A stretch of 5,397 nt of DNA. It comes from Nitrospinae bacterium RIFCSPLOWO2_12_FULL_45_22. GTDB lineage: Bacteria; 2-12-FULL-45-22. Made by a program: the position numbers and the translations under genes. Shown here one piece after another: positions 443 to 5,397 of the stretch (the stretch's first letter is position 1; every line of letters begins with the position of its first letter). Below the pieces are notes generated by a model. That model was not told the origin of the DNA. It made no database searches and saw nothing but the letters and a program-made list of their open reading frames with translations. The stretch is taken from positions 1 to 5,397 of the forward strand of contig MHDQ01000197.1 in assembly GCA_001803565.1 (NCBI GenBank), given 5' to 3'.

Positions 443-904
443 ATGAAGAAAGAGACTTTATACCTTGATACATCTGTTCCGAGCGCTTATTATGATAAGA
501 TGAAACCAGAGAGACAAAAGTTAACCTGGGAGTTTTGGAAAAAATTAGAGAAATACGAAGTATATATCTCAGAGATGACAGAGATAGAATTAAAAAACAC
601 AAAGGAGAGAAAGAAAAGAAATCAATTCCTCTCGTTGATTGCTGGAATGGAGATACTTCCTATAACCGAAGAGGTCATTGAATTAGTCCAAATCTACCTT
701 AAAAATAAGGTTGTCCCTAAGGCAAAAGAAGAAGATGCTTATCATATTGCGGTTGCTACACTGAATGAGATTGATATTATTGTGAGTTGGAACTTTGACC
801 ACTTAGTGAATATAAAAACGAGGAGGAGAGTAAATGGGGTGAATATACTGCACGGGTATAAACCTATAGAAATAATCTCCCCTCCAGAGTTAGGAGGTGA
901 TTAA
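443..904 (+). CDS. PIN-domain RNase, VapC-like toxin candidate
   Basis: This 153-residue protein has the layout of a single PIN domain, a Mg2+-dependent RNase fold used by VapC-type toxins. The first acidic residue is D9 in YLDTSVPSAYYD, the second is E47 or E49 in EMTEIEL, the third is D98 in KEEDAYHIAVA, and the fourth region is SWNFDHLVN (N117/D119), followed by an N/GY-rich tail and the closing segment IISPPEL. The length fits the family. The ATG at 443 follows a modest AAAAAGGA SD with about 9 nt spacing. The stop codon at 902-904 lies within the SD region and just before the start of the downstream gene, so the two are translationally coupled. Family knowledge supports RNase activity; toxicity is inferred from the paired small gene. 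In classical VapBC operons the antitoxin comes first, so this order is reversed. It could also be a solitary PIN nuclease. Confidence 0.88.
   Translation: MKKETLYLDTSVPSAYYDKMKPERQKLTWEFWKKLEKYEVYISEMTEIELKNTKERKKRNQFLSLIAGMEILPITEEVIELVQIYLKNKVVPKAKEEDAYHIAVATLNEIDIIVSWNFDHLVNIKTRRRVNGVNILHGYKPIEIISPPELGGD
892..900 (+). promoter_or_regulatory. SD sequence that sets the start of the PIN partner gene
   Basis: AGGAGGTGA is a near-perfect complement to the 3' end of 16S rRNA. It overlaps the last codons of the PIN gene and sits about 8 nt before the GTG at 906. It argues against the GTG at 897, which lies inside the SD itself. Confidence 0.8.
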
Positions 905-905
905 G

Positions 906-1118
906 GTGGCGAAAAAGAAAGAATTTACTGATGACCCAATGATGCATAAGCTGCATGAGATACGATCTGAGATTCACCAAAGGATTAAAGATTTAAACCC
1001 TAAAGAGAAGGTTGCATGGATACATAAAGAAGCAGAAGGATTTTTGAAATCTCAAGGTTATAAACTTACCCCTGCGAGGAAAGGTTATCGTATTGCGGCA
1101 AAGAGTATAAAAGGGTAA
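906..1118 (+). CDS. Small partner of the PIN protein, antitoxin candidate
   Basis: This is a 70-residue basic, helix-prone protein starting at GTG 906, one base after the PIN stop codon, and driven by the strong SD at 892-900. Residues 10-31 (DPMMHKLHEIRSEIHQRIKD) look like an amphipathic helix. Residues 36-50 (VAWIHKEAEGFLKSQ) look like a second helix, and the end (KLTPARKGYRIAAKS) is Arg/Lys-rich. I see no clear ribbon-helix-helix, AbrB or Phd signature, so DNA binding is not shown. Position and coupling suggest an antitoxin or accessory protein for the PIN RNase. The family resembles small proteins I associate with this PIN subtype, but I cannot name it. A longer version beginning at GTG 897 is possible but less likely. 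Confidence 0.78.
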   Translation: MAKKKEFTDDPMMHKLHEIRSEIHQRIKDLNPKEKVAWIHKEAEGFLKSQGYKLTPARKGYRIAAKSIKG

Positions 1119-1152: not shown

Positions 1153-1209
1153 ATGATGAATTTGGTGAATATTCCGGCATCCTTCATAGAAGATAGGGTC
1201 AGGTCTTGA
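1153..1209 (+). pseudogene. Truncated small reading frame interrupted by the 76-bp repeat
   Basis: A GGAGG at 1140-1144 is followed at 8-nt spacing by ATG ATG at 1153-1158. The frame reads MMNLVNIPASFIEDRVRS and then stops. The last residues come from the inverted-repeat element that starts near 1187. The good SD and spacing suggest the start of a third gene in the PIN operon that lost its body when the element arrived. The visible peptide is too short to assign. Chance is a real alternative. Confidence 0.35.
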
Positions 1210-1262
1210 ATCTTGACTTTTTCTCGATAGTCAGCAATGTCAAAAGTAAAGACCTGACCCCA
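1187..1262. repeat. Inverted-repeat (MITE/REP-like) element, copy 1
   Basis: This 76-bp unit matches 5139-5214 in the same orientation at 74 of 76 positions (differences at 1198 and 1247). It contains a perfect 12-bp inverted repeat, GGGTCAGGTCTT at 1196-1207 against AAGACCTGACCC at 1249-1260. Nested inside is TTGAC at 1213-1217 facing GTCAA at 1239-1243. It can therefore fold into a long hairpin on either strand. No transposase is present, so it would be non-autonomous; REP-like elements mobilised by RAYT/IS200-type transposases are the nearest known analogy. It lies between the convergent PIN pair and E1 gene, 15 nt beyond the E1 stop codon, and could act as a two-way terminator, although neither side has a U-tract. 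Confidence 0.85.
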
Positions 1263-1277
1263 GTAAACCACTGCGAA

Positions 1278-2156
1278 TTACACAGGCAGGTCTTTTGGCA
1301 ATCCTGTCCGGGTGTATCTTTTCAGGTCTGCTGACCCCCTTTTGCCCACCAATGAGTTACAAATAACGCAATCTTCCTTTTTCTTGTCAGTTCTTACATT
1401 AACCTTCCCTTGCATGCCCTTATAAACCAGCATCCGATTAGGAGTCCTTATGTTTGTCAGCAGCATGAGAAACTCAGTGACTGCCAGATTGGCTATGATG
1501 CCATTCAGGGATATCACTGCCGGGGCAGTTGCACCGCCACCTAAGCCATAACCGTGTTTTTCACGAAACTCCCTTTCAGGAGGGCTCTCCAATTCAATCT
1601 TGGCAACCTCTGTATCAATTTGGTTTGCACATAAAGCACAAAAATCACCAGGGCGAGCAATTATTACGCGCCCGCCAAATTCCACGACCCGGCCTTCCGC
1701 AGGGTAAATCTCAGCAGCCGAGTCAATCAGCGGGATTTCATATGCAGTTGAAAGCTCCGTCAGTATCAGCCGGGCTGCGTCATTATCCACACACCCGAAA
1801 AGATAATCTATATAGGTGAGTGCGTCCAGAACTTTCTCATTCCTAAGGTTCATGGACAGCTTGTTGATCTTGGCGTCGAGGCTTATCTGTTTTATCATTC
1901 TTTCCGCTACTTCCACTTTCAACCTTTTTTCTTTCACATCAATTGGGAGAGCGCCGACTAAACGGTTCAGGTTGGACTCCTCAACAATGTCATCATCAAC
2001 TGTCAGGAAGTCTTCCGCTCCAAGATACGCAAGGGCCTGTGCTATATGGGATCCCATCCCTCCCAAGCCGACAATGCCGATTTTAGCAGTTGCCAGCTTC
2101 CTCTGGCCTTCTTCCCCAAATGCAAGTATTTGCCTTGAAAACCTACCATCGCTCAT
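1278..2156 (-). CDS. E1-like (ThiF/MoeB-fold) Ubl-activating enzyme
   Basis: This 292-residue enzyme should adenylate the C-terminal glycine of the Ubl encoded in the same operon. Visible in order are FSRQI (6-10), the nucleotide-binding GLGGMG (30-35), VDDDIVEESNLNR (53-65) with the ATP-contacting Asp and Arg of the family, K77/K80, and DNDAAR (124-129). Zinc ligands are CALC (C173/C176) and CVIC (C263/C266), followed by a 26-residue tail. In MoeB/ThiF relatives a catalytic cysteine precedes the AGV-like helix. Here that stretch is HGYGLGGGATAPAV (201-214) with no Cys. The only other cysteine, C122, lies in the nucleotide-binding domain next to DN. Classical thioester transfer is therefore doubtful. 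The ATG overlaps the JAB stop codon as ATGA and follows a GAGGTGA SD. It is the last gene of the operon. The fold assignment is secure; the biochemical step is inferred. Confidence 0.92.
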   Translation of the reverse strand: MSDGRFSRQILAFGEEGQRKLATAKIGIVGLGGMGSHIAQALAYLGAEDFLTVDDDIVEESNLNRLVGALPIDVKEKRLKVEVAERMIKQISLDAKINKLSMNLRNEKVLDALTYIDYLFGCVDNDAARLILTELSTAYEIPLIDSAAEIYPAEGRVVEFGGRVIIARPGDFCALCANQIDTEVAKIELESPPEREFREKHGYGLGGGATAPAVISLNGIIANLAVTEFLMLLTNIRTPNRMLVYKGMQGKVNVRTDKKKEDCVICNSLVGKRGSADLKRYTRTGLPKDLPV

Positions 2157-2710
2157 TTGTCACCTCGCTTAAAAAGAGTGGCAGACCAGCTAAACAACCT
2201 TTCCCGGATTGACGGTTTAACAATCTTGCATCTTCCATCTTTCTTGATTATGCGGACTTCTCTCACAGGAATTGGTATCGGGTTATCCGTGTTCCAGAGC
2301 TGACCATACACTGAAGTTTTAGTCCATACCAAAGCAGCATATTTTTTGCCGGGAAGTTTCCAACGGACATAACTGACAAACTGCTCCAGACCGACGACAT
2401 CACTGGGAGAGAATTGTGCCATTCCATGGGTGCTTCTGTGAGAATGGCACTCCACAAGGTTGCAGTTCTTATTCCTTGCCGTTATCATTACCTTTACTTT
2501 CTCCTGCTCGTTCAATTCTAAATAAGACGATTCCTGAACGTCCCAACCAGTGGACTTTACCAAGTAAATGCCCTCGACATTCAGATTGATATTGGAAGAG
2601 GTCCCGGAATCGGTGGCGAAGAGGAAAGCTCCCTGTTCTTTTCTCCCTTTAAAGAGATGTCTTCTCAGTTCGTTGTAAAACTCTTCTGGAATTGTGATGA
2701 TGGCTTCCAT
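2153..2710 (-). CDS. JAB/JAMM metallopeptidase, probable Ubl deconjugase
   Basis: The protein is 185 residues from the ATG at 2710. JAMM zinc peptidases (Rpn11, CSN5, Mov34-type) cut isopeptide or peptide bonds after Ubl C-termini. The catalytic elements are the Glu in KEQGAFLF (E25) and the zinc motif in ECHSHRSTHGMAQFSPSD, with H89, H91, S101 and D104. The gap between HxH and SxxD is nine residues rather than the usual seven. There is no signal peptide. The neighbouring Ubl already ends in glycine, so precursor processing appears unnecessary; deconjugation is the likelier role. A TTG at 2719 could add three residues, but an AAGGGAG SD at 2727-2721 is only 1 nt from TTG and 10 nt from ATG, so I prefer ATG. 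It starts one base after the E2 stop codon and overlaps E1 by four bases. Confidence 0.88.
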   Translation of the reverse strand: MEAIITIPEEFYNELRRHLFKGRKEQGAFLFATDSGTSSNINLNVEGIYLVKSTGWDVQESSYLELNEQEKVKVMITARNKNCNLVECHSHRSTHGMAQFSPSDVVGLEQFVSYVRWKLPGKKYAALVWTKTSVYGQLWNTDNPIPIPVREVRIIKKDGRCKIVKPSIRERLFSWSATLFKRGDK

Positions 2711-2711
2711 C

Positions 2712-3101
2712 TTAACCAAGCTCCCTTAGGCGAATTTTGACTGACCTCATGAAGGATAAAAGATTGTCCCCTTCCTCTGTGCTGCTTGATGGATGCCATT
2801 GCTCTGCATGCCAGGAGAAACAACCCCAAGATCCTCCTAACGGGACCCCTGCTCCTTCACTGTAGTTTTGGATTGGGTTATCGTTGCTCAGCTTGAGTCC
2901 GCTTTCCACATAGAAGTTATCCGGAGCAGTATGGGGGTATGAAGAAGGGATAAGAAATAGAAGCTTCGTTTGTTTGCGGTTCAATCCATCCGGCAGAGGG
3001 AAATCAGGTATCAATATCCAGTCATAATTCTCTCCGTGCTGCAGGTTTGGGTATTTTGCCCGGAGCAGCTCAATTTCCTTAAGCATTCTCTCTTTCATCA
3101 T
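2712..3101 (-). CDS. E2-like (UBC-fold) protein, probably prokaryotic E2 family E
   Basis: This 129-residue protein resembles short bacterial E2/UBC-fold proteins encoded beside Ubl, JAB and E1 genes; my best guess is Prok-E2_E. An N-terminal helix (residues 3-17) precedes beta strands. The YPHTAP segment (55-60) corresponds to the YPxxPP loop of classical E2s. GGSWGCFSWHAEQWHP (89-104) lines up with the GxICLDIL...WSP active-site stretch, so C94, its only cysteine, falls at the catalytic position. LLSFMRSVKIRLREL is the following helix. The HPN tripeptide of eukaryotic E2s is absent; H98 and H103 lie just after the cysteine. ATG 3101 directly follows the Ubl TGA, and an AGGGGGTGA SD overlaps that stop. 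The second ATG at 3098 has the better spacing (6 nt against 3), so initiation there is possible. It is expected to carry or position the Ubl for transfer. Confidence 0.82.
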   Translation of the reverse strand: MMKERMLKEIELLRAKYPNLQHGENYDWILIPDFPLPDGLNRKQTKLLFLIPSSYPHTAPDNFYVESGLKLSNDNPIQNYSEGAGVPLGGSWGCFSWHAEQWHPSSSTEEGDNLLSFMRSVKIRLRELG

Positions 3102-3332
3102 TCACCCCCTCTTGAATTTAGGAGCTCTTCCAAAACCGTGACCCGGCTTTAACTCTACGGTTTCATTTTCGCCAAGGGTTCTTTCCGTTCCATCCGGAAA
3201 TTCTTCAACCACGGGCATGTCAGTTGGGAGATTTCCCAGGGTGCGAATTTCAGTCGTTGTGATCGTGTCCTTTTCCCACGGATACTCCTTTCCTTCGATC
3301 GTGACAAAATACTTTTTCCCTTTTTCGTTCAT
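3102..3332 (-). CDS. Single-domain ubiquitin-like protein (multiubiquitin family type)
   Basis: This 76-residue protein fits the beta-grasp multiubiquitin-type Ubl pattern: a KKYFVTIEGKEYPWE beta hairpin (6-20), a helix-leading stretch TITTTEIRTLGNLP (23-36) in which TEIRTLG matches the family's EIL-type helix, then a second hairpin with FPDGTER (45-51), NETVEL (56-61) and a tail HGFGRAPKFKRG. It ends in a single exposed Gly76 after Arg75, as expected for a substrate of E1 adenylation, without a removable extension. Other members often carry several tandem domains; this has one. There is no cysteine. The ATG at 3332 follows a textbook AGGAGGTG SD (3346-3339), the strongest in the operon, consistent with a high demand for the modifier. 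It abuts the E2 gene. Conjugation is inferred from the gene neighbourhood. Confidence 0.88.
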   Translation of the reverse strand: MNEKGKKYFVTIEGKEYPWEKDTITTTEIRTLGNLPTDMPVVEEFPDGTERTLGENETVELKPGHGFGRAPKFKRG

Positions 3333-3353
3333 TTTTGCACCTCCTCTGTGGTA

Positions 3354-3373
3354 GAGGGGGCTATTGCCCCCTT
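3354..3373 (-). other. GC-rich intercistronic hairpin before the Ubl gene
   Basis: AGGGGGC and GCCCCCT form a perfect 7-bp stem with a 4-nt loop, plus one possible G-U pair at the base. It lies in the 45-nt gap between the small leader gene and the Ubl gene, ending about 8 nt before the Ubl SD. There is no U-tract after it, so it is not a standard terminator. It could be an mRNA processing or stability barrier, or an attenuator that separates expression of the leader gene from the rest. Confidence 0.6.
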
Positions 3374-3377
3374 CAAC

Positions 3378-3545
3378 CTATTTCTTGTGTTTGGTCGTAT
3401 CAACCAGGTTAAACTTTGAACCTTTAGGCCCTGGCGGCAAAGGTTCACCCTTGACCGATGTGACTTCGGTTCCTGTCCTGGTGTTCTTATACTGGCCAGA
3501 GACCGGAGTCTTCTCCCCTGACTTTAAACTTTTGGTATTTGTCAT
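3378..3545 (-). CDS. Small YjzC-like protein, first gene of the Ubl operon
   Basis: This 55-residue protein starts at ATG 3545 with a strong AAGGGGGTGA SD (centred near 3558). It reads with KSGEKTPVSGQYKN (8-21), TGTEVTSVKGEPLPPGPKG (24-42) and ends FNLVDTTKHKK. The KxGxxxPxSGxY opening and the PP-containing middle recall YjzC-type small proteins of unknown function. No cysteines, membrane segment or signal peptide are visible. It is too short for most gene finders, yet it is the promoter-proximal gene of an otherwise complete conjugation cassette. A substrate, adaptor or modulator role is possible but unproven. The opposite-strand frame at 3364-3576 is a shadow of it. I am confident it is translated and unsure of its function. 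Confidence 0.8.
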   Translation of the reverse strand: MTNTKSLKSGEKTPVSGQYKNTRTGTEVTSVKGEPLPPGPKGSKFNLVDTTKHKK

Positions 3546-3580: not shown

Positions 3581-3609
3581 ATTTTAACCACCGCTTAATT
3601 TATTGTCAA
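3581..3609 (-). promoter_or_regulatory. Sigma70-type promoter of the Ubl conjugation operon
   Basis: On the minus strand, TTGACA (3609-3604) is followed after exactly 17 bp by TAAAAT (3586-3581). Transcription would start near 3574, giving a leader of about 30 nt before the ATG at 3545. The -10 and spacer are overlapped by the operator-like site at 3584-3598. Confidence 0.8.
3584..3598. promoter_or_regulatory. Operator-like site 1
   Basis: TTAACCACCGCTTAA is a 15-bp imperfect dyad (TTAAnC-N3-GnTTAA). It recurs at 3629-3643 with 13 of 15 identical bases. It covers part of the -10 and the spacer of the minus-strand promoter, where a bound repressor would block RNA polymerase. An extra GGTTAA half-site lies at 3571-3576, near the predicted start of transcription. 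The likely binder is the adjacent XRE protein. Confidence 0.6.
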
Positions 3610-3628: not shown

Positions 3629-3643
3629 TTAACCAGAGCTTAA
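3629..3643. promoter_or_regulatory. Operator-like site 2
   Basis: TTAACCAGAGCTTAA matches site 1 in the same orientation, offset by 45 bp. It lies just upstream of the -35 box (3651) of the plus-strand regulator promoter. Binding here could autoregulate the XRE gene, or cooperate with site 1 by looping. Confidence 0.58.
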
Positions 3644-3650
3644 AAATATT

Positions 3651-3679
3651 TTGACTAAAATTACCTTTTGATTTATATT
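3651..3679 (+). promoter_or_regulatory. Sigma70-type promoter of the XRE-ImmA regulator operon
   Basis: TTGACT (3651-3656) is followed after 17 bp by TATATT (3674-3679). The start of transcription would be near 3686, giving a leader of about 27 nt before the ATG at 3713. It diverges from the Ubl operon promoter; the two -35 boxes are about 41 bp apart. Confidence 0.75.
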
Positions 3680-3712: not shown

Positions 3713-4069
3713 ATGAATGAAAATATTGCTGAGATAATCGGAAAGAGAATCAGGGCTAAAAGGGAGGAAATTGGCATGAGACAGAAGAGGCTTGCTGAAA
3801 AAGTGGAAGTGAGCCCTGCTGCAATCAATCAGTTTGAGAAAGGGGAGAAAAAGCCTTCTTCTGAGGTTTTGGCCCGTATCGCAACTGAACTTGGGGTTTC
3901 AACAGACTATTTGCTTGGTGCTTCTGATGAGGAGAAAATGTTCCTCAGCGGCAATGTGGTTGCTGCTTTCCGGGATTTTAAGGAATTAAGCAAGAAGGAC
4001 AGAGAGATTATCTTAAGCCATATTGAATTTCTTAAGTCCAAGGCAAAAGAAAAGGAAAAAGGGAAATGA
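3713..4069 (+). CDS. XRE-family (Cro/CI-like HTH) repressor, ImmR/CapH-like
   Basis: This is a 118-residue protein. The HTH domain spans about residues 11-68: KRIRAKREEIGMRQKRLAEKV leads into the recognition segment SPAAINQFEKG, then KPSSEVLARIATELGVSTDYLL. The C-terminal part (72-118) is a charged helical segment ending in a Lys/Glu-rich tail, as in ImmR-type repressors that are cut by a partner peptidase. The ATG at 3713 follows GAGAGGGG with 5-nt spacing; an upstream in-frame start at 3668 lies inside the promoter and is rejected. Its stop codon overlaps the ImmA start by four bases. From its position beside two operator-like sites it probably represses both itself and the divergent Ubl operon. 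That target is inferred, but the domain assignment is clear. Confidence 0.93.
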   Translation: MNENIAEIIGKRIRAKREEIGMRQKRLAEKVEVSPAAINQFEKGEKKPSSEVLARIATELGVSTDYLLGASDEEKMFLSGNVVAAFRDFKELSKKDREIILSHIEFLKSKAKEKEKGK

Positions 4070-4893
4070 GCCTGGCAAAATATCATGCAAATTCCGTTAT
4101 TAAGAAATTTAGCATCAAAGACCTGCCTGTTGACCCTTATAGAATCTCCAAAGAAATGGAGATTGAGGTTGTGGAAGATGATTGCGAGGGCTATACCGGG
4201 ATGCTTTTGGTGGTTGCAGGCCAGGCCCTTATCAGCGTTAAGTCGAGTATAAGAGAATATCCCAAGAAGAGGTTTACCGTCGCACATGAAATGGGGCATT
4301 TTAGCATTCCTGAGCATATCACAGAGGAAAGGTATTTTTTCCAGTGCACGGACAAAGACCTCAATACCTTTGATAAAAAAGGAGGCAGGGAAGCCGAGGC
4401 TAACGAATTTGCCGCTGAGCTTCTGATGCCAGAAGACATCTTCAAGGAAAAAATAAGGCTAAAGGATCTCAGCTATAATTTGCTCCAGGATTTAACATCA
4501 GAGTTTGAAACCTCTCTTACCGCTACTGGAATCAGGTTTTCGGAGCTGTCAGGTGATTATGCGCTGGTCTGCTCAGAGAACTCCTGCATCAAATGGCTTA
4601 TCAAAGGCGATAACTTTCCATTCTATGTCAGAGGCGAAGGAAAGCTTGCCAATGAATCGATAGCGATAGAATTTTTCAGGGGCAAAAAACTTCCAAAATC
4701 TTTCGAGACGGTGCCTGCCTTTGCCTGGCTGGATGATTATAAGCTCAAAGGTGATATGGATGTCCAGGAATTATCCATCCCGCTTCCTTATTACGACCAG
4801 GTCTTGAGCTTCCTTTACATGGAACCCCGCGAAGAAGATGAGGACGATGAATATTTGGAAGAGTTGGATGGTTATCCTAGATTTAAAAAATAA
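4066..4893 (+). CDS. ImmA/IrrE-family zinc metallopeptidase, CapP-like
   Basis: This is a 275-residue protein. The zinc motif HEMGH (H74, E75, H78) lies in RFTVAHEMGHFSIPEH, and the third ligand is Glu109 or Glu111 in REAEANEFAAELLMP, the standard ImmA/IrrE arrangement. Residues 140-185 continue the helical part that follows in this family (TATGIRFSELSGDYALVCS). A further C-terminal domain (about 186-252) may sense a signal, and the end is very acidic (REEDEDDEYLEELDGY, 255-270). Family knowledge: ImmA cleaves the ImmR repressor of ICEBs1, and CapP cleaves CapH to induce CBASS, reportedly when stimulated by single-stranded DNA. By analogy this enzyme would cleave the upstream XRE protein and derepress the Ubl operon. 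ATG 4066 overlaps the XRE stop as ATGA. The last 26 bases overlap the second XRE gene. Confidence 0.93.
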   Translation: MSLAKYHANSVIKKFSIKDLPVDPYRISKEMEIEVVEDDCEGYTGMLLVVAGQALISVKSSIREYPKKRFTVAHEMGHFSIPEHITEERYFFQCTDKDLNTFDKKGGREAEANEFAAELLMPEDIFKEKIRLKDLSYNLLQDLTSEFETSLTATGIRFSELSGDYALVCSENSCIKWLIKGDNFPFYVRGEGKLANESIAIEFFRGKKLPKSFETVPAFAWLDDYKLKGDMDVQELSIPLPYYDQVLSFLYMEPREEDEDDEYLEELDGYPRFKK

Positions 4894-5062
4894 CTTAATC
4901 CGATTTGAGACGAACCAAGAGGACATTGGCAAAAAGCTTGGCATTAGCCAGAGCATGGCTAGCAGGCTGGAAAAAGGCAAGAACCCATCAGTTGAGCTTT
5001 TGCTGAAAATAAGCGAGGTTTTCGGGAAGTCTATGGACTGGATACTGAAGCACGAAGGATAA
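4868..5062 (+). CDS. Minimal XRE-family HTH protein
   Basis: This 64-residue protein is almost only an HTH domain: NQEDIGKKLGISQSMASRLEKG (16-37) holds helices 2 and 3, and NPSVELLLKISEVFGKSMDWIL (39-60) completes the fold. I chose ATG 4868 because a GGAAGAG SD lies 4-5 nt before it; the in-frame ATG at 4838 would add ten residues encoded within the ImmA acidic tail and has no clear SD. The gene overlaps ImmA by 26 bases in another frame, so it is third in the regulator operon. It lacks a dimerisation or cleavage domain. It might compete with the first XRE protein for operators, or form heterodimers with it, or it may be the C-terminal remnant of a longer regulator. Function beyond DNA binding is unknown. 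Confidence 0.8.
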   Translation: MVILDLKNNLIRFETNQEDIGKKLGISQSMASRLEKGKNPSVELLLKISEVFGKSMDWILKHEG

Positions 5063-5097: not shown

Positions 5098-5397
5098 CTA
5101 AACCCATTTTCTTGATTTCCATACACTTACGATCATAGTAGAAGATAGGTTCAGGTCTTGAATCTTGACTTTTTCTCGATAGTCAGCAATGTCAAAAGGA
5201 AAGACCTGACCCCATTGAACAGCCTTAAGGGCATCCCTGGATGCCTCAAAGAAGGCTAAAATTCCATCACCACCCACAGCCCATGCCTTGCCTCCAACCT
5301 TGTCTATCTCTTCCCTCAAGAGGTCTCTCTGTCGCTGGATGATGACGGCGGCCATATCGCCTTCTTCAGAGAAGATGGCAGTTGAGCCCTTCATATC
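5098..5397 (-). pseudogene. Class III adenylate/guanylate cyclase domain, 5' part only, truncated by repeat copy 2
   Basis: The frame enters from the right edge with DMKGSTAIF, the D-x-x-GST start of a class III nucleotidyl cyclase domain, whose first Asp is a metal ligand (codon 5397-5395). It continues through RQRDLLREEIDKVGGK and WAVGGDGILAFFE, where the Asp of GGDG (near 5268) is the second metal ligand, then RDALKAVQ. At 5214 the frame runs into the 76-bp element, which adds WGQVFPFDIADYREKVKIQDL before a stop at 5098-5100. The rest of the domain, including the downstream nucleotide-binding residues, is missing, so the product should be inactive. The true start is outside the window; the Met at 5394 is internal. 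It may have been an unrelated gene next to the island. Confidence 0.75.
5139..5214. repeat. Inverted-repeat (MITE/REP-like) element, copy 2
   Basis: This is the direct-repeat partner of 1187-1262, with 74 of 76 bases identical. The 12-bp arms are at 5148-5159 and 5201-5212 with one mismatch at 5150. It sits at the breakpoint of the cyclase frame. On the minus strand it keeps one frame open throughout, so it adds residues to the broken protein before the stop. Confidence 0.85.

What the first reader, a model, noticed from the sequence alone, without database searches (positions are those of the whole stretch)
1278..3545. Complete bacterial ubiquitin-like conjugation operon with a single-domain, pre-matured Ubl
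The operon encodes Ubl, E2-like, JAMM peptidase and E1-like proteins with gaps of 0 or 1 nt or a 4-nt overlap, plus a small leader gene. The Ubl is 76 residues and already ends in Gly, so it needs no processing, unlike multi-domain or extended Ubls. No E3 or RING protein is seen. Prokaryotic Ubl-E2-JAB-E1 clusters are established (Bil and Bub systems; E2-family-E operons in comparative genomics), and some Bil operons are antiphage. A defence role here is inference.
Basis: partly seen in the sequence, partly recalled or inferred. Interest (0 to 1): 0.85.

Follow-up and report, generated by a model that had tools for sequence, protein, structure and literature searches.

The report
DNA-damage-controlled bacterial ubiquitin-like conjugation operon
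A bacterium carries a compact set of genes that should attach and remove a ubiquitin-like tag, placed next to a known DNA-damage switch used to control anti-virus systems; it is a stripped-down variant of a recently described family (Bub), not a new kind of system.

Summary
The operon is real. The best solved-structure relatives of the E2, JAB and E1 are all Bub proteins (Citrobacter BubB, BubCD), so this is a Bub operon ("6e" in the 2006 comparative genomics), not Bil. Published work links CapW or CapH+CapP to 219 of 544 Bub operons. Two copies of one dyad motif lie in the shared promoter region and nowhere else in the genome. The E2 nucleophile is most likely Ser96: it is conserved in 26 of 27 family members, and close relatives have no cysteine at all. 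Variant features: JAB and E1 are separate genes, DUF6527 is absent, and the Ubl is a single domain ending at FKRG. In relatives FKRG is followed by MSS or fused to the E2. The YjzC-like gene also sits beside CapH/CapP on enterobacterial plasmids without Bub, the freshest lead. Phage defence is unproven.

The parts
3378..3545 (-). YjzC-like small protein, 55 aa, first gene of the operon
   Evidence: ORF with strong SD. Weak PF14168 YjzC 14.7 bits, below cut-off. tblastn/alignment to annotated 'YjzC family protein' genes at roughly 43-55% identity. Single copy in own genome.
3355..3372 (-). GC-rich hairpin between the YjzC-like gene and the Ubl gene (no T-run)
   Evidence: -17.5 kcal/mol for the 45-nt spacer, z -2.3; no terminator found
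3102..3332 (-). Ubl (BubA-type), single beta-grasp domain, 76 aa, C-terminus FKRG (codons 3105-3116)
   Evidence: PF14452 Multi_ubiq above cut-off; weak match to solved multi-Ubl 9d59; 38% identity to the Ubl of L050
2712..3101 (-). E2 family E (BubB-type), 129 aa; candidate nucleophile Ser96 (2814-2816); sole Cys94 (2820-2822)
   Evidence: PF14462; BubB 9eae/9eav by sequence; predicted fold matches BubB Z 12.3, 116 residues, rmsd 2.7; conservation
2153..2710 (-). Stand-alone JAB/JAMM metallopeptidase, 185 aa
   Evidence: JAMM residues E25, H89, H91, S101, D104 invariant; profile hit to BubCD N-terminal domain 1.2e-10
1278..2156 (-). Stand-alone E1-like adenylating enzyme, 292 aa, single adenylation domain with two CxxC pairs, no Cys domain
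   Evidence: PF00899 1.2e-39; best solved relative BubCD 8.9e-20; its 5 cysteines are C122, 173, 176, 263, 266
3581..3609 (-). Predicted sigma-70 promoter of the operon (TTGACA-17-TAAAAT, 11/12)
3651..3679 (+). Predicted sigma-70 promoter of capH-capP (TTGACT-17-TATATT, 10/12)
3584..3598 (.). Candidate CapH operator 1, TTAACCACCGCTTAA, overlapping the -10 and spacer of the operon promoter
   Evidence: only two exact TTAACCANNGCTTAA in 3.67 Mb, both here; dyad pair not reached in 60 shuffles
3629..3643 (.). Candidate CapH operator 2, TTAACCAGAGCTTAA, between the two promoters
3713..4069 (+). CapH-type HTH repressor, 118 aa
   Evidence: PADLOC capH 7.5e-22; HTH_3
4066..4893 (+). CapP-type ImmA/IrrE metalloprotease, 275 aa, HEMGH at residue 74
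   Evidence: PADLOC capP 1.8e-57; solved CapP 7t5t 5.5e-12; HExxH
1187..1268 (.). Left 82-nt flanking direct repeat with inverted-repeat arms
5139..5220 (.). Right 82-nt flanking direct repeat (95% identical)

Best explanation
A compact Bub (bacterial ubiquitination-like, class 6e) conjugation operon under CapH/CapP control. In resting cells the CapH repressor sits on two dyad operators in the shared promoter region and keeps the operon low (inferred). When single-stranded DNA accumulates through DNA damage or phage replication, CapP is activated, cleaves CapH and releases both promoters (published for CapHP elsewhere, inferred here). The E1 then adenylates the C-terminal Gly of the 76-aa Ubl, which is encoded already mature at FKRG. 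The Ubl passes to Ser96 of the E2 as an ester rather than to a cysteine, and then to a target protein (inferred from conservation; oxyester chemistry in Bub is from my memory of the published family). The separate JAMM peptidase removes the Ubl from targets; in relatives with tailed or E2-fused Ubls it would also do the maturation step that this operon no longer needs. The targets and the benefit are unknown; defence against phage or a broader DNA-damage response are both open. The YjzC-like protein is co-induced; its role is unknown.
For: Shown by sequence: Ubl, E2 and E1 families. Closest solved relatives are BubB, BubCD E1 domain and BubCD JAB domain. The E2 predicted fold (mean pLDDT 72) matches BubB at Z 12.3 over 116 residues, rmsd 2.7, then many E2/UEV folds at Z about 9-10. 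JAMM residues are intact. E2 Ser96 is conserved in 26 of 27 aligned family members; Cys94 occurs only here; the 50%-identical E2 of L050 and the Tenderia-type E2s have no cysteine at all. Mature C-terminus: FKRG* here, FKRG-MSS* in L050, FKRG-[E2] in L003/L013/L014. Regulation: CapH/CapP, facing promoters, two genome-unique dyad motifs. Similar dyad pairs lie in the capH intergenic regions of E. coli, Klebsiella and a Rhizobium Bub locus. PMC13373217: 219 of 544 Bub operons have CapW or CapH+CapP, and CapP is activated by ssDNA and cleaves CapH.
Against: No experiment exists for this operon, and Bub operons have not been shown to protect against phage (PMC13373217). The Bub mechanism papers were not in the library, so the oxyester step rests on conservation plus memory. 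The window E2 does carry one Cys two residues before Ser96, at canonical E2 spacing to Trp102, so a thioester is not excluded. The JAB model was poor (pLDDT 53), so its fold was not confirmed by structure. DUF6527, present in most Bub operons seen here, is missing, which could mean that the operon is reduced or works differently.
Confidence: 0.78

Rival explanations
1. The operon is a Bil-type (bacterial ISG15-like) antiphage system.
For: Same four activities in one operon; the JAB has a faint PADLOC BilC match, E 0.0087.
Against: No BilA, BilB or BilD match. Bil E1 has two adenylation domains and a Cys domain, BilB has a CEHH motif, and BilA has two Ubl domains (PMC11354881); here the E1 is one domain without a Cys domain, the E2 lacks the motif and the Ubl is single. 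The nearest solved structures are all Bub.
Confidence: 0.03
2. The cluster acts in sulfur-carrier or cofactor chemistry (ThiS/MoaD-like carrier with a ThiF/MoeB-like E1) rather than protein conjugation.
For: The E1 is ThiF-family with CxxC-CxxC like MoeB/ThiF; JAMM peptidases also occur with such carriers (PMC1779556).
Against: A true E2-fold protein is present. No thiamine or molybdopterin genes are nearby. ThiF/MoeB scores are far below their cut-offs (91.8 vs 275 bits). The carrier ends in -RG, not -GG, and belongs to Multi_ubiq.
Confidence: 0.05
3. The E2 works through its sole cysteine, Cys94, as a normal thioester E2 (a reverted Bub E2).
For: Cys94 is the only Cys and lies 8 residues before the conserved Trp102, the usual E2 spacing (the canonical spacing is from general knowledge).
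Against: Cys94 is found in 1 of 27 relatives, Ser96 in 26 of 27. The 50%-identical relative L050 has no Cys. Ser-to-Trp spacing in the family runs from 5 to 9, so spacing does not single out Cys94.
Confidence: 0.08
4. The operon is a general DNA-damage stress module, not a defence system.
For: CapH/CapP senses DNA damage; Bub has not been shown to block phage, and PMC13373217 itself raises this option. The first gene is a YjzC-like small protein.
Against: CapHP usually guards immune operons (PMC13373217), and this class of operon is on mobile elements and plasmids, as defence genes are.
Confidence: 0.4

Closest known systems
Bub (bacterial ubiquitination-like) operons, e.g. Citrobacter BubA-BubB-BubCD
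   Same: Homologous Ubl, E2 family E, JAB and E1; Ser in place of Cys in the E2; link to CapH/CapP
   Different: JAB and E1 are two genes here, not one BubCD protein; no DUF6527; one mature Ubl domain instead of a multi-domain Ubl or Ubl-E2 fusion; YjzC-like first gene
Operon class 6e of Iyer et al. 2006 (polyUbl, E2/RWD-like without Cys, JAB-E1, C-x3-C...metal-binding protein), PMC1779556
   Same: Same protein set; that paper already lists one to three Ubl domains and a solo-Ubl case
   Different: JAB-E1 unfused and metal-binding partner absent here; the E2 was called inactive then, but the conserved Ser and later Bub work argue for activity
Candidatus Tenderia plasmid operon (CP013100, locus L003) and two gammaproteobacterial MAG loci (L013, L014)
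   Same: Separate JAB and E1, no DUF6527, FKRG Ubl end, extended loop after the active site of the E2
   Different: Three Ubl domains fused to the E2; other upstream genes, no CapH/CapP and no YjzC-like gene
Operon in genome G405 (locus L050)
   Same: Closest E2 (50% identity) and E1 (44%), single Ubl ending FKRG, HTH-protease gene divergent
   Different: Ubl carries a MSS tail, JAB and E1 fused, HTH and protease fused in one RmrA-like protein, no YjzC-like gene
CapH+CapP regulatory pair of CBASS
   Same: Both proteins match the PADLOC models, and CapP matches solved CapP 7t5t
   Different: Guards a Bub operon here; candidate operator sequence differs from those near other capH genes

Membership tests
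Bub / class 6e | Ubl of the Multi_ubiq family | tested here: met
   PF14452 33.1 bits over a cut-off of 24.5
Bub / class 6e | E2 of family E | tested here: met
   PF14462 50.1 bits over a cut-off of 25; BubB by sequence and fold
Bub / class 6e | Ser, not Cys, conserved at the E2 active site | tested here: met
   Ser96 in 26 of 27 sequences; no Cys at all in several relatives
Bub / class 6e | E1 related to the BubCD E1 domain | tested here: met
   8.9e-20, best of all solved chains
Bub / class 6e | JAB related to the BubCD JAB domain, JAMM residues intact | tested here: met
   1.2e-10; E25, H89, H91, S101, D104
Bub / class 6e | JAB fused to E1 (usual, not required: 'typically fused', else an adjacent gene, PMC1779556) | tested here: not met
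   Separate genes here and in the Tenderia type; fused in the other operons surveyed. Not a required feature, so membership is not lost
Bub / class 6e | DUF6527 metal-binding partner (common, not universal) | tested here: not met
   None in the window, and none found in the 85%-complete genome (no positive control); also not found in Tenderia-type loci
Bub / class 6e | Oxyester conjugation activity | not testable with these tools
   Needs purified proteins
Bil | Two-domain BilA, E2 with catalytic Cys/CEHH, E1 with two adenylation domains and a Cys domain | tested here: not met
   Single Ubl, no conserved Cys in the E2, 292-aa single-domain E1; no BilA/B/D model match
CapH+CapP regulators | HTH repressor plus ImmA/IrrE protease with HExxH, adjacent and divergent to the controlled operon | tested here: met
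CapH+CapP regulators | ssDNA-activated cleavage of CapH | not testable with these tools
   Published for relatives (PMC13373217, PMC10904395)

The most novel reading that the evidence does not exclude
The YjzC-like protein is not a passenger but a working part of a CapH/CapP-induced response: a small effector, or the favoured Ubl target. The same small gene sits directly divergent to CapH/CapP, with no Bub genes beside it, on small E. coli and Klebsiella plasmids, so CapHP would have two outputs joined in this operon.
Probability: 0.2. Interest if true: 0.65.

Novelty: new variant of a known kind. Interest (0 to 1): 0.42.

Why it matters
It gives a small, fully split Bub system (one mature Ubl, separate E2, JAMM and E1, no DUF6527), convenient for testing which parts are needed for conjugation without a maturation step. 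The series FKRG* / FKRG-MSS* / FKRG-E2 points to where the mature Ubl ends in this branch. The CapH/CapP link and the shared YjzC-like gene suggest a testable DNA-damage regulon. If the YjzC link holds, it would name an uncharacterised small protein family as a CapHP target.

Tried and rejected
Searches for closer copies: genome contigs with a concatenated E2-JAB-E1 alignment gave two gammaproteobacterial MAG loci only. IMG/VR gave nothing with two queries, and phage records gave no JAB match, so a phage-borne origin is not supported. The window's own phylum holds only two genomes, so no near relatives could be compared. The YjzC-like gene as a constant Bub part was rejected: no hit in any other Bub locus examined. 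YjzC always beside CapHP was rejected: of the other YjzC-like contexts examined, only the three enterobacterial plasmids carry CapHP, and those are probably one lineage. An Rfam RNA in the window: none. An intrinsic terminator between leader and Ubl: none, only a hairpin without a T-run. The JAB structure model (pLDDT 53) was judged too poor to search. The DUF6527 search in the genome was empty but has no positive control. The main Bub papers (NSMB 2026, Structure 2025) and the Bil paper are not in the library.
Full report
What is there. The Ubl scores as Multi_ubiq and the E2 as Prokaryotic E2 family E, both above Pfam's cut-offs, and the E1 as ThiF. The JAB has no Pfam match on its own; a four-sequence profile of it matches the N-terminal domain of Citrobacter BubCD at 1.2e-10, and the JAMM residues E25, H89, H91, S101 and D104 are invariant across eight aligned sequences.

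Which family. The nearest solved structures are Citrobacter BubB for the E2 (2e-6), BubCD for the E1 (9e-20), BubCD for the JAB and a bacterial multi-ubiquitin protein for the Ubl (0.004). A structure model of the E2 (mean pLDDT 72) matches BubB best, Z 12.3 over 116 residues at rmsd 2.7, followed by many eukaryotic E2 and UEV domains at Z about 9-10. So this is the Bub family, which by content equals operon class 6e described in 2006: polyUbl, a UBC-fold protein without the usual cysteine, JAB fused to E1, and a metal-binding protein (PMC1779556). It is not Bil: there are no BilA/B/D matches, and Bil's two-domain Ubl, Cys-containing E2 and double-domain E1 (PMC11354881) are all absent.

The missed switch. 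Divergent from the operon lie CapH (PADLOC 7.5e-22) and CapP (1.8e-57; solved CapP 5.5e-12; HEMGH motif). CapP is a protease activated by single-stranded DNA that cleaves the repressor CapH, and 219 of 544 Bub operons were reported with CapW or CapH+CapP (PMC13373217). Facing sigma-70-like promoters were found (TTGACA-17-TAAAAT on the minus strand, TTGACT-17-TATATT on the plus strand). A 15-nt dyad, TTAACCANNGCTTAA, occurs exactly twice in the 3.67 Mb genome, both in this intergenic region, one copy over the operon's -10. The pattern was drawn from these two copies, so the count shows uniqueness rather than an independent prediction; a dyad pair as good was not reached in 60 shuffles. Paired dyads of other sequence appear in the capH intergenic regions of E. 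coli, Klebsiella and a Rhizobium Bub locus; two further loci (G286, G405) showed none above the shuffles.

Active sites. In an alignment of 27 family E proteins, Ser96 is conserved in 26 (the exception is a haloarchaeal protein), whereas the window's only cysteine, Cys94, is unique to it. The E2 of L050 (50% identity) and the Tenderia-type E2s have no cysteine. The likely nucleophile is therefore Ser96. As I recall, the Bub mechanism paper reports oxyester intermediates, but that paper was not available here. The E1's five cysteines are C122 in the ATP-site motif and two CxxC pairs; there is no Cys domain.

Ubl maturation. The window Ubl stops at FKRG. In L050 the same motif is followed by MSS and a stop; in the Tenderia plasmid and two gammaproteobacterial MAGs it runs straight into the E2 as FKRG-F[DE][EQ]NS. 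This marks the likely mature end and implies that a protease, most simply the JAB, is needed for maturation in those relatives and not here. Ubls that already end in Gly also occur in Rhizobium and Mesorhizobium operons (...KANFG*), and solo Ubl domains were listed in 2006, so the feature is useful but not new.

What is different here. In a survey with PF14462, 13 of 396 and 6 of 386 genomes had a match (the sets share at least one genome). In the operons examined, JAB and E1 are fused in one ORF except in the window and the Tenderia type, and DUF6527 is usual. DUF6527 was not found in this window or elsewhere in this 85%-complete genome (without a positive control). The window thus belongs to a branch marked by FKRG, an extended loop after the E2 active site, and no DUF6527; within it, the window has the most dissected gene set.

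The leader. The 55-aa first gene is a YjzC-like protein, matched at roughly 43-55% identity by YjzC-like genes on plasmids of several phyla, present once in this genome, and absent from the other Bub loci. On small E. coli and Klebsiella plasmids a YjzC-like gene lies directly divergent to CapH/CapP (PADLOC capP 3e-50 and capH 2e-28). In the other YjzC-like loci looked at there is no CapP. Two independent pairings are suggestive, no more.

Setting. The block from the operon through capP is flanked by 82-nt direct repeats (95% identical), each with inverted arms; they are the only full copies in the genome, and the right copy interrupts an ORF. The contig is only 5.4 kb from a fragmented, 85%-complete genome, so its binning could be wrong, and the host phylum is poorly sampled.

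Verdict. Observation confirmed; conjugation reading supported; family known (Bub/6e); variant of moderate interest. Shown: gene content, homology, catalytic residues, regulators. Inferred: oxyester relay, CapHP control at this promoter, deconjugation by the JAB. Unknown: targets, biological benefit, role of the YjzC-like protein.

Noticed in passing
L073:1708-3183, L075:1199-2686, L081:1227-2686: On small Klebsiella and E. coli plasmids a YjzC-like gene lies directly divergent to CapH and CapP with no known defence operon annotated beside it; it may be a CapHP-controlled gene in its own right.
   Followed up: partly
window 1187-1268 and 5139-5220: 82-nt direct repeats with inverted arms (GGGTCAGGTCTT...AAGACCTGACCC) flank the Bub-CapHP block; only two full copies in the genome, and a 19-nt core is found in two IMG/VR contigs. 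Possible mobile-element or REP-like ends.
   Followed up: partly
window 5098-5397 (-): ORF resembling the end of a nucleotide cyclase domain (GDGILAFFEASRDALKA) runs into the right-hand repeat, as if interrupted by it. No family match above threshold.
   Followed up: no
window 443-1118 (+): PIN-domain (VapC-like) gene overlapped by a 73-aa partner gene that follows it; a likely toxin-antitoxin pair just outside the left repeat.
   Followed up: no
window 4868-5062 (+): A third XRE-type HTH ORF of 64 aa overlaps the 3' end of capP in another frame and may be a further regulator.
   Followed up: no
L012:3744-5883 (Natrinema plasmid): A haloarchaeal relative of the Bub operon in which the E2 lacks the conserved Ser and has a nearby Cys (HCIHELHDW), and the downstream gene is a membrane-protein-like ORF rather than DUF6527.
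   Followed up: no
L004:5705-7171, L005-L008: Alphaproteobacterial and Deinococcus Bub operons carry an extra phosphotransferase-like gene between E1 and DUF6527.
   Followed up: no
L014:5436-9711: The Tenderia-type operon in this MAG is followed by genes that look like integrative conjugative element transfer genes, consistent with mobility of the branch.
   Followed up: no
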